Shown here piece by piece: positions 23,293-25,240 of a stretch of DNA of 64,000 nt. The notes under the pieces were generated by a model. The model did not search any database, was not told where the DNA came from, and was given only the letters and a program-made list of their open reading frames with translations. The DNA lies in IMG/VR virus record IMGVR_UViG_3300045994_000055, positions 62,001 to 126,000 of that record; one strand, given 5' to 3'. Position 1 is the stretch's first letter, and each line of letters opens with the position of its first letter. A program made the translations under genes and the position numbers. Source of the stretch: a virus.

Positions 23293-23667
23293 TTATTCTC
23301 CTTTATCCATTATGCTGTATGCTTTGCTTGCACGGAATTTGTACAAACTAAACTTCTTGAAAATTTCCTTTTGCTCTTCGTAGTAGATAGGTTCAGTCGT
23401 AAGACTTGTAAACCCTGTCTCATAGTCAGGCTCGTGGAACATGTGAAATTTAATGCCGTTGTTGATCAAGTGATCACCGGCCTTCATCAACGCTGCTTCG
23501 TTCTTAGCCTCTAGTAATACTAGGAACGTGTTTGTTGTTGGATTTCGATTCTTGAAATCCCGCCCGGATTCCTGTGCGGAATGGGCAGCTTGCACAATTT
23601 GAGTCTCGATTGGTAAGTCCGAGCGAATAAAGGTGTAGCAGTAGTGTTTGCCGTCTATCTATTTCAT
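23293..23667 (-). CDS. Peptidyl-tRNA hydrolase (PTH2)-like protein with in-frame UAG at codon 3
   Basis: The only start with a proper ribosome site (AAGGAG at 23676-23681, 8 bases away) is ATG 23665-23667, but codon 3 is TAG (23659-23661). Past it the frame stays open for 122 codons and continues the family: IDGKHYCYTFIRSDLPIETQ, IVQAAHSAQESGRDF, TFLVLLEAKNEAALMKAG, FHEPDYETGFTSLTTEPI. This resembles short PTH2-fold proteins of phages and proteobacteria (pattern memory). No ATG, GTG or TTG between the TAG and codon 20 has a good ribosome site; starting at GTG or ATG further in would delete the first strand of the fold. A tRNA with anticodon CUA lies 1.5 kb upstream on the same strand. Readthrough is one explanation, a nonsense mutation or sequencing error the other. 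Confidence 0.65.
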
Positions 23668-23696
23668 TTTGATTTCTCCTTGGTTAAAATGATCGT

Positions 23697-23748
23697 AAAA
23701 AAGCCCGTACGAGAACTCTTCCTCTAATTGGAAGCTCTGGTCCGGGCT
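23697..23748 (-). terminator. Terminator after the zinc-ribbon gene
   Basis: On the minus strand AGCCCG pairs with CGGGCT across an inner GAAGC/GCTTCC-type stem, followed by T6. It separates the zinc-ribbon gene from the PTH2-like unit. Confidence 0.8.
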
Positions 23749-23796
23749 AAAAGGGTAATAGTTAATCTATTGCATTATGTATTTAGTCTAGCACAA

Positions 23797-24681
23797 TTAC
23801 GCGAAGATTTCAAGTGCTGTGCCGCATTCTGTACAAAATTTTGCATTCGCTTTGTTCATTTTGCCGCAAGTAGTGCACTTTGGCTTTGCTTTTACTGTAA
23901 CTGGTAGCAGCACGGGCTTATTGTCAGGGGTTTCACCCAACAGTTTAAGCACAATGGAATGCTTTTCTGGCAGCACTGGGAACCAGCTTGCAGTAGCAAA
24001 CTTTTGATCGCTCTTGGAACCAGCAACGGTGATGCCAGCATCGTTATAGCTTACGTTCTGTGCTTGCGCAGTCACATTGTTCAACGATGCATTGGTAACG
24101 GATGCGGAAGCACCAGACGCAAGTACACTGCGAGCAATGCTCGACTTGAATGGTACTGGCTCATTGCTGCTGAAGGTGGCGTCACCGCTGCTCCATTGTG
24201 CATTGTTAACTTGGGAGATGGTGTTACCTAGTCCCTTGAAAATCATTCCATCTTGGCGCAAGCCAGTATGTTGCTGCTTCCACACGTTTTGTTGGTAGTC
24301 CCAAATCGTAGTTCCAGCGAATGTAATTGGTAGGTGTTCGAACTGATACGAGATGTTGATGATACCGTCTTCGATACCAATGCCCTTATGTGCTTCGATT
24401 TGTGCAGTGCGCTCAATGAATTTGAACTTATTGCCTGCTGAGAGGTTGCCGTTCTTGATCCAGCGTTCCAAATCAATGGTTTGTCCTGCGAGCAGCACTA
24501 AGCCGCCAGGACAGACATCAGTACCGTCAAGCGTAATGTTTACGATGGCGCGGACCGTGTTGAGATTTTTAAGAACTATGGAGTATTCTGAGCCGAATGG
24601 GATATAAACTGTATCCTTGAACTCACGTAAGATTTTGCCGTTAGCTTTTAGGCTCGCAACGAGCTTTTGATTGTACATCAT
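23797..24681 (-). CDS. Protein with C-terminal zinc ribbon, phage-conserved N-terminal domain
   Basis: A 294-residue protein. The N-terminal half is beta-rich: ASLKANGKILREFKDTVYIP, FGSEYSIVLKNLNTVRAIVN, LDGTDV, then ERWIKNGNLSAGNKFKFIE and GIINISYQFEHLP. The last 25 residues form a double-Cys zinc ribbon (CTTCGKMNKANAKFCTECG). The layout resembles proteins I have seen in several phage families without known function. AAGGA is 9 bases before the start; a second ATG follows at once. The order in the unit is SLOG gene, then this, then terminator. Confidence 0.7.
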   Translation of the reverse strand: MMYNQKLVASLKANGKILREFKDTVYIPFGSEYSIVLKNLNTVRAIVNITLDGTDVCPGGLVLLAGQTIDLERWIKNGNLSAGNKFKFIERTAQIEAHKGIGIEDGIINISYQFEHLPITFAGTTIWDYQQNVWKQQHTGLRQDGMIFKGLGNTISQVNNAQWSSGDATFSSNEPVPFKSSIARSVLASGASASVTNASLNNVTAQAQNVSYNDAGITVAGSKSDQKFATASWFPVLPEKHSIVLKLLGETPDNKPVLLPVTVKAKPKCTTCGKMNKANAKFCTECGTALEIFA

Positions 24682-24761
24682 TATGTTTCCTTTTTACTGC
24701 TTTGGACTACAAGCACAATTTATTAAAGTCCAGATTTGCTACAACCGAGTAACAAAAATAT

Positions 24762-25154
24762 TTATCTCGGCAGCACGACGTGCAGACGAAACTTTTTCCT
24801 AGCATAGCGCACAGTAGCCCAAGTACCAGATCGTACTTCTTCTACGCTGCGCATTGGGGCAGCAAACAAAAACTCGCATTCATCTACGATGTTCTTGTCC
24901 CGCGTCAAGTAATCAAATTGGGGTCTTAACTCATCACCCACACAATATGCACGAGCTATCTGTGCTTTTGGTGGGTGAACTACGATTCTGGCATCTGGGA
25001 ACGAGTTTTGGACTATCATGTGTGCCTCAGCGTCTGCGCCCATGCAATCACCATGATGAAACTCAGTCATACCCATTTTACCGAGAAGCATGTAAAAGCT
25101 TTCGACTTGGGAATCACTCATTCCTTCTCTCGAACCAGTAAATCCAATTTTCAT
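24762..25154 (-). CDS. SLOG-family nucleotide-binding protein (YspA/cpYpsA-like)
   Basis: A 130-residue Rossmann-like protein with the SLOG pattern: KIGFTGSREGM at the start, FHHGDCMGADAEAH near 33, IVVHPPKA near 57, RDKNIVDECEFLFAAP near 85, and RSGTWATVRYARK near 107. SLOG domains bind nucleotide derivatives, including NAD or ADP-ribose-type ligands, and occur in DprA and in cytokinin-producing enzymes; the ligand here is unknown. It lies directly after the tRNA gene, 9 bases away, behind the same promoter. Confidence 0.75.
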   Translation of the reverse strand: MKIGFTGSREGMSDSQVESFYMLLGKMGMTEFHHGDCMGADAEAHMIVQNSFPDARIVVHPPKAQIARAYCVGDELRPQFDYLTRDKNIVDECEFLFAAPMRSVEEVRSGTWATVRYARKKFRLHVVLPR

Positions 25155-25163
25155 AGTGTCCTT

Positions 25164-25240
25164 TGGTGCGTTATCCCGGATTCGAACCGAGCACCGTCGA
25201 GTTTAGAAGTCGCCGCTCTAACCAAATGAGCTAATAACGC
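25164..25240 (-). tRNA. tRNA with anticodon CUA (putative amber suppressor)
   Basis: A 77-base cloverleaf with encoded CCA. Acceptor GCGTTAT/ATAACGC, T-arm CTCGG-TTCGAAT-CCGGG, D-arm GCTC/GAGC and a 5-base variable loop are all canonical. The anticodon loop is TTCTAAA, so positions 34-36 are CTA (25204-25206), which reads UAG. The anticodon stem is weak: three central pairs hold, but 27-43 is G-A and 31-39 is C-C. Shifting the loop to read UCU (Arg) leaves even fewer pairs. It is therefore a real tRNA-like gene; function as a suppressor is likely but unproven. Confidence 0.8.

What the first reader, a model, noticed from the sequence alone, without database searches (positions are those of the whole stretch)
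23293..25240. CUA-anticodon tRNA and a PTH2-like gene with UAG as codon 3 in one locus
Seen: a tRNA with loop TTCTAAA (anticodon CTA at 25204-25206) and, 1.5 kb downstream on the same strand, a gene with a perfect ribosome site, ATG, AAA, then TAG, then 122 open codons of conserved type. UAG ends only three genes in the window, none structural. Inference: the phage makes a suppressor tRNA and uses it to gate a peptidyl-tRNA-hydrolase-like protein, itself a tRNA-related activity, so that the protein appears only once enough suppressor tRNA is made.
Basis: partly seen in the sequence, partly recalled or inferred. Interest (0 to 1): 0.75.

Follow-up and report, generated by a model that had tools for sequence, protein, structure and literature searches.

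The report
Phage gene gated by matching suppressor tRNA
Many large bacterial viruses put a stop signal at the very start of one gene, a peptidyl-tRNA-hydrolase-like gene, and carry a tRNA that reads exactly that stop signal; when the stop signal differs between viruses the tRNA differs with it, so the pair looks like a natural on-switch built from the genetic code.

Summary
The window phage (134 kb record) has one credible tRNA, anticodon CUA, and one early-UAG gene, a PTH2-fold gene with UAG at codon 3. In 174 related loci (102 clusters), 64 clusters have a stop at codons 2-10 directly before the PTH2 domain. These phages otherwise use the standard code. The decisive evidence is covariation: UAG genes come with CUA tRNAs (46 of 46 clusters that have a local suppressor tRNA), UGA genes with UCA (4/4), and the UAA gene with UUA (1/1). 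On the tree this is six independent codon switches, counting Atu_ph07. Two predictions made before looking came true. Atu_ph07, published with an unexplained UCA tRNA, has a UGA-gated PTH2. Its 72%-identical relative in phage Phosso has UAG there, and two CUA tRNAs. The base after the stop is a purine in 63/63 clusters, and dN/dS after the stop is about 0.1. It also names a target for XacN1's suppressor tRNAs, which its authors could not find. Charging, the inserted amino acid, timing and the protein's activity are not shown. Why this gene is gated is inferred.

The parts
25164..25240 (-). suppressor tRNA gene, anticodon CUA (anticodon at 25206-25204); the only credible tRNA in the 134 kb record
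   Evidence: ARAGORN; Rfam RF00005 51.5 bits, E 2e-9; no other tRNA in the rest of the record; anticodon-stem mismatches 27-43 and 31-39
23293..23667 (-). UAG-gated PTH2-like gene: ATG AAA TAG, then 121 codons, TAA
   Evidence: sequence; Pfam PTH2 19.7 bits, E 1e-3; profile of relatives matches PTH2 structures in PDB, best E 8e-10; AF2 model pLDDT 91, best Foldseek matches are PTH2s Bit1/MJ0051
23659..23661 (-). gating stop codon UAG (codon 3), followed by A
   Evidence: conserved as a stop directly before the PTH2 domain in 64 of 102 clusters; next base a purine in 63/63
23676..23681 (-). Shine-Dalgarno-like AAGGAG 8 nt before the ATG of the gated gene
   Evidence: sequence
23702..23748 (-). 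hairpin followed by T run just upstream of the gated gene; intrinsic-terminator-like, so the gene may be in its own or an attenuated transcription unit
   Evidence: RNA fold -21.4 kcal/mol, z -3.1, followed by TTTTTT

Best explanation
This is a codon-specific translational gate. The phage PTH2-like gene carries a stop codon within its first codons. In a normal cell release factor ends translation there and no protein is made. The phage also makes a tRNA whose anticodon pairs with that stop codon. Once it is transcribed, processed and charged by a host synthetase, it competes with the release factor, so some ribosomes read through and make the full protein. Because tRNA and message are both phage products, the circuit is an AND gate (coherent feed-forward): tight when the tRNA is absent, delayed, and proportional to suppressor tRNA over release factor. 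Shown here by comparative evidence: the stop is conserved, the reading frame after it is under protein-level selection, the stop codon and the anticodon change together, and the rest of the genome uses the standard code. Inferred: charging, actual readthrough, timing, and the reason for gating this gene. I think the most likely reason is that the PTH2-like protein deals with peptidyl- or aminoacyl-tRNA products of suppression, so production is tied to the amount of suppressor tRNA (safety valve or feedback).
For: (1) Covariation: of 51 gated clusters with a local suppressor tRNA, UAG-CUA 46/46 (one also has UUA), UGA-UCA 4/4, UAA-UUA 1/1; naive probability of a perfect match given the counts 8.5e-8. 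Nearest tree neighbours of each UGA/UAA gene are UAG-gated, and parsimony gives six switches when Atu_ph07 is included. (2) Two predictions made before looking: Atu_ph07, published with one UCA tRNA, has ATG ATT GGC GAA CAC TTT TGA before a canonical PTH2; Phosso, 72% identical protein, has ATG AAG TAT TAG and two CUA tRNAs, no UCA found. (3) Complete genomes: 8/8 gated carry the matching suppressor, 4/4 ungated carry none. (4) Base after the stop is a purine in 63/63 gated clusters versus 49% after terminal TAGs and 58% at codon 4 of ordinary genes. (5) Median dN/dS after the stop about 0.09-0.14 in the larger clusters while the codons before it and their number vary. (6) Suppressor tRNAs are on the same strand in 52/52 and closer to the gene than other tRNAs (median 782 vs 2665 nt, p 1e-14). 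(7) No global recoding. (8) 12 ungated clusters have a CUA tRNA 4-24 nt after the PTH2 gene, so the two belong together even without a gate.
Against: No experiment: charging, readthrough and protein are not shown. The window tRNA has two anticodon-stem mismatches (although 41 of 90 suppressors have at least one, mostly at 27-43 or 31-39). Seven TAG-gated clusters with adequate flanks have no CUA tRNA within the fetched flanks, not checked genome-wide; RAS14 and XacN1 show the tRNA can be far away. Clusters are not phylogenetically independent, so p-values are naive. The amino acid inserted is unknown. Ungated PTH2-like genes next to suppressor tRNAs mean the gate is not the tRNA's only use.
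Confidence: 0.9

Rival explanations
1. The stop codon is a pseudogene mutation or sequencing error.
For: A stop at codon 3 looks like a nonsense mutation in one genome.
Against: Stop present in 64 clusters of independently sequenced phages; dN/dS about 0.1 after the stop; stop identity matches the anticodon.
Confidence: 0.01
2. Reinitiation: the mini-ORF (fMet-X-stop) is a leader, and ribosomes restart just after the stop at a non-AUG codon such as AUU/AUA/GUA; the suppressor tRNA is unrelated.
For: AUU/AUA/AUC or GUN follow the stop in most clusters; two-codon minigenes are known to matter for peptidyl-tRNA drop-off (own knowledge: lambda bar minigenes and Pth).
Against: Does not explain why UAG, UGA and UAA genes carry CUA, UCA and UUA tRNAs, nor the two passed predictions. 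AAC, AGA, ACA, GGT after the stop in other clusters are not start codons. Ribosome sites are placed for the ATG.
Confidence: 0.05
3. These phages use a globally altered code (such as code 15, TAG=Gln) and the early TAG is just one of many reassigned codons.
For: Some relatives (LR756501 type) have a further in-frame TAG in the gene; code-15 phages carry CUA tRNAs.
Against: Reading TAG through does not raise coding coverage more than the other stops; the strict scan finds one early-TAG gene in G000; TAG still ends genes; UGA- and UAA-gated members exist. G000 has no RF-1 family gene or class II PheRS/PylRS-like synthetase.
Confidence: 0.03
4. The gate is real but serves mainly as a timer or leak-stopper for a protein harmful early in infection, with no feedback between PTH2-like protein and the tRNA.
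For: The engineered version, a suppressor-tRNA coherent feed-forward loop, does exactly this in E. coli (PMC7969014); the stop lies at the very start, where no partial product is made.
Against: Suppressor tRNAs are also linked to ungated PTH2-like genes (12 clusters, 4-24 nt; Lak phages 0.6-0.7 kb), which suggests a functional partnership beyond timing; several phages leave a second, canonical PTH2 ungated.
Confidence: 0.35

Closest known systems
Suppressor-tRNA use in alternatively coded phages (code 15, crAss-like and Lak phages; PMC9523058, PMC8346664, PMC11210395)
   Same: Phage-encoded CUA/UCA tRNA reads an in-frame stop in a standard-code host; proposed to control gene expression.
   Different: There the stop is reassigned throughout many genes; here one gene, one stop at codons 2-10, the rest of the genome standard, and any of the three stops can serve as long as the tRNA matches.
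Engineered suppressor-tRNA coherent feed-forward loop ('leak dampener', PMC7969014)
   Same: A gene with stop codons and its suppressor tRNA are both required, giving an AND gate with low leak.
   Different: Synthetic, in E. coli; here natural and conserved, with a tRNA-related protein family as target and a possible feedback.
Peptidyl-tRNA hydrolase 2 (PTH2/Bit1, PF01981)
   Same: Fold and core (R, D, Q, H invariant). Atu_ph07 and Phosso have the canonical GK motif.
   Different: Window protein and most gated relatives lack the GK lysine, the window protein scores below the Pfam cut-off, and some are fused to an HD domain before (XacN1, RAS14) or after (pT24) the PTH2 part.
XacN1 and Atu_ph07 suppressor tRNAs (PMC5852040, PMC6102473)
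   Same: Same phages, same tRNAs; the XacN1 authors looked for targets.
   Different: XacN1 authors could not identify a target; Atu_ph07 authors named only genes ending in UGA as possible targets. The early-stop PTH2 genes found here were not reported in the passages read.
RF2 autoregulation by in-frame UGA (own knowledge)
   Same: An early in-frame stop makes a translation factor's synthesis depend on decoding state.
   Different: RF2 uses frameshifting, no tRNA partner gene.

Membership tests
PTH2 (PF01981) | PTH2 fold | tested here: met
   AF2 model pLDDT 91; Foldseek top hits 1q7s, 2zv3, 1wn2, TM about 0.7
PTH2 (PF01981) | Pfam gathering score (23 bits) | tested here: not met
   window protein 19.7 bits; family profile vs PDB PTH2s best E 8e-10
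PTH2 (PF01981) | lysine of the GK motif in helix 1 (catalytic in canonical PTH2, own knowledge) | tested here: not met
   alignment A1: LPIETQIVQAAH in the window, QQxVQ in most relatives; present in Atu_ph07 and Phosso (GKLASQ)
PTH2 (PF01981) | peptidyl-tRNA hydrolase activity | not testable with these tools
   needs biochemistry
suppressor tRNA (CUA) | tRNA covariance model above gathering score | tested here: met
   RF00005 51.5 bits vs 29
suppressor tRNA (CUA) | anticodon complementary to UAG | tested here: met
suppressor tRNA (CUA) | fully paired anticodon stem | tested here: not met
   27-43 and 31-39 mismatched in the window; 41 of 90 family suppressors have at least one mismatch
suppressor tRNA (CUA) | aminoacylation and decoding of UAG | not testable with these tools
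   inferred from codon-anticodon covariation
alternative-code (code 15) phage | TAG used as sense codon in many genes | tested here: not met
pyrrolysine system (ARAGORN label tRNA-Pyl) | PylRS-type (class II PheRS-superfamily) synthetase | tested here: not met
   no PF01409 match in the 134 kb record, which may be incomplete

The most novel reading that the evidence does not exclude
A natural class of regulatory pair: a dedicated suppressor tRNA plus an initiation-proximal stop codon acting as a one-gene AND gate and feedback loop, in which the gated PTH2-family protein controls the suppressor tRNA or its products. It would be spread over diverse phages, independent of which stop codon is used, and possibly a stepping stone to whole-genome stop-codon reassignment.
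Probability: 0.45. Interest if true: 0.97.

Novelty: new variant of a known kind. Interest (0 to 1): 0.92.

Why it matters
Suppressor tRNAs in standard-code jumbo phages have been an open puzzle: XacN1's authors could not find a target, Atu_ph07's pointed only to genes ending in UGA, and Lak phages universally carry a UUA suppressor without UAA recoding (PMC8346664). This gives a specific target gene that can be tested by genetics and mass spectrometry in cultured phages. It also shows a natural gene switch built from a codon-tRNA match, explains missed or wrongly started genes in GenBank (BF gene not annotated; GAP32, CBB, Phosso started inside), and offers a route by which stop-codon reassignment could begin.

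Tried and rejected
Sequencing error or pseudogene: rejected by conservation and dN/dS. Global TAG recoding: rejected by the coverage test. Pyrrolysine system: no synthetase of the class found. Phage-encoded RF-1 family factor: none found in G000. Reinitiation: does not explain covariation. First viral scan with the window protein found nothing and alignment A1 was too divergent; scans with sub-alignments A2-A4 worked. Scans of bacterial genome contigs with A3 and A2 found no relatives, so at that sensitivity I saw the family only in phage and virus records. The second ARAGORN tRNA (Val, 42520) is probably false. The strict early-stop scan missed the ME3 and pT24 genes, probably through its ribosome-site and start-codon filters, so its count of gated genes per genome is a lower bound. 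In Lak-A1 and Lak-B1 the gene looked ungated although a UUA tRNA lies 0.6-0.7 kb upstream. The main paper on phage stop-codon recoding (Borges 2022) is not in the library, so prior mention cannot be fully excluded.

Full report
OBSERVATION. The window lies in a 134,351-base virus record. On the minus strand a CUA-anticodon tRNA (25164-25240) is followed about 1.5 kb downstream by AAGGAGAAATCAAA-ATG-AAA-TAG and 121 open codons. The tRNA is real by covariance model (51.5 bits) and is the only credible tRNA of the record. The open frame is a PTH2-like protein: Pfam PTH2 E 1e-3 but under the cut-off; the profile of its relatives matches solved PTH2s with best E 8e-10; its AlphaFold2 model (pLDDT 91) matches Bit1 and archaeal PTH2s best. 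The PTH2 lysine (GK) is absent in the window protein and in most relatives.

THE STOP IS CONSERVED. tblastn against phage records gave 37 relatives. Fetched loci showed a TAG at codon 3-4 in CBB, GAP32, XbC2, Kaldavass, BF, SNUABM_19, ME3, Arash, pT24, LR756500/501/511, and at the start of HD-PTH2 fusions in XacN1 and RAS14. GenBank annotation starts these genes inside or misses them. Scans of IMG/VR with sub-alignments brought the set to 174 loci, 102 clusters at 80% protein identity. Of these, 59 have TAG, 4 TGA and 1 TAA at codons 2-10 directly before the PTH2 domain. The loci were found by PTH2 similarity after the stop, so neither the stop nor the tRNA entered the selection.

THE tRNA MATCHES THE STOP. 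Gated clusters with a suppressor tRNA within the fetched flanks: UAG 46 of 46 with CUA (one also UUA), UGA 4 of 4 with UCA, UAA 1 of 1 with UUA (naive chance of a perfect match 8.5e-8). On a protein tree that also includes Atu_ph07 and Phosso, each UGA or UAA member has UAG-gated nearest neighbours, and parsimony counts six switches. For complete genomes, gated G000, ME3, GAP32, pT24, XacN1, RAS14 and Arash carry CUA, and UGA-gated G002 carries UCA only. Ungated RaK2, S-CBWM1, Mx1 and Hallingskeid, with 8, 36, 37 and 7 tRNAs, carry no suppressor. G000 is counted here although its record may be a fragment.

PREDICTIONS. The Atu_ph07 paper reports one UCA suppressor tRNA and two putative peptidyl-tRNA hydrolases. 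I predicted a UGA-gated PTH2 (noted); the sequence is ATG ATT GGC GAA CAC TTT TGA ATT AAT... before a canonical PTH2. For a relative with CUA I noted the opposite prediction (made for phage AP-J-162, which did not turn up in the collection). The relative that is there, Phosso (72% identical protein), has ATG AAG TAT TAG GTT and two CUA tRNAs, no UCA found. Because these two are canonical PTH2s far from the rest on the tree, the gate arose, or moved, on two quite different PTH2 branches.

SIGNS OF READTHROUGH. The base after the stop is A or G in 63 of 63 gated clusters tallied, against 49% after terminal TAGs and 58% at codon 4 of ordinary genes. A 3' purine is known to favour amber suppression (own knowledge, Bossi 1983 and others). 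Median dN/dS after the stop is about 0.09-0.14 in the larger clusters, while the codons between ATG and stop, and even their number, vary. The rest of these genomes follows the standard code: reading TAG through adds no more coding coverage than the other stops, and TAG still ends 4-12% of genes.

THE PAIR WITHOUT THE GATE. Twelve ungated clusters have a CUA tRNA 4-24 nt after the PTH2-like gene. Lak-A1 and Lak-B1 have a UUA tRNA 0.6-0.7 kb before an ungated PTH2-like gene. GAP32, RaK2, XacN1 and RAS14 carry a second, canonical PTH2 that is ungated. So suppressor tRNA and PTH2-like protein seem to be functional partners, and the gate is one way of tying them together. Suppressor tRNAs lie closer to the gene than other tRNAs (median 782 vs 2665 nt) and always on its strand in gated loci.

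MECHANISM. Shown by comparison: stop codon and tRNA evolve as a matched pair, and the protein after the stop is selected. Inferred: the phage tRNA is charged by a host enzyme and competes with the release factor, making the gene an AND gate with delay and low leak, as in the engineered circuit of PMC7969014. Likely but unproved: the protein acts on peptidyl- or aminoacyl-tRNAs made by suppression, closing a feedback loop. Alternatives (pure timer, reinitiation, recoded genome) are listed with their weaknesses.

NOVELTY. Suppressor tRNAs in recoded phages are known. I found no report, in the open-access library only, of a one-gene stop gate with a matched tRNA, nor of PTH2 as its target; XacN1's authors searched and found no target. 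I class it as a new variant of a known kind, with a categorically new regulatory class as the most novel reading.

LIMITS. All evidence is sequence-based. Clusters are related, so p-values are naive. Seven TAG-gated clusters lack a tRNA within the fetched flanks. IMG/VR contigs may be fragments. The window tRNA's mismatched anticodon stem could lower its efficiency. The inserted amino acid is unknown.

Noticed in passing
L013:4428-5303 (XacN1 ORF364), L014:4440-5303 (RAS14), L018:4935-5882 (pT24): The gated PTH2-like domain is fused to an HD domain, in front of it in XacN1/RAS14 and behind it in pT24: a hint at a shared pathway (tRNA end repair or nucleotide hydrolysis).
   Followed up: partly
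L101, L104, L107, L108, L111, L114: A second fusion type: an unknown domain (ILRAM...AFTPV...KLANG) in front of the PTH2-like part, no gate seen, CUA tRNA 0.7-2.9 kb upstream.
   Followed up: partly
L347:4236-4308, L348:4341-4413: Lak megaphages have a UUA suppressor tRNA 0.6-0.7 kb upstream of an ungated PTH2-like gene; their paper reports UUA suppressors in 51/51 genomes without UAA recoding.
   Followed up: partly
90 suppressor tRNAs of the family: Anticodon-stem mismatches, mostly at 27-43 and 31-39, are commoner in the suppressors (41 of 90) than in other tRNAs of the same loci (91 of 393); possible tuning of suppression strength.
   Followed up: partly
window 24762-25154 (-): The gene directly after the tRNA starts MKIGFTGSREGM and looks like a SLOG-type nucleotide-binding protein (PHROG match only to a 'GTP-binding domain'); phage Mx1 also has a SLOG gene near its PTH2.
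   Followed up: no
PHROG 34073; GenBank CBB_406, GAP32_397, Phosso gp267: Database entries of this family are truncated at the N-terminus or missing because gene callers stop at the gating codon.
   Followed up: partly
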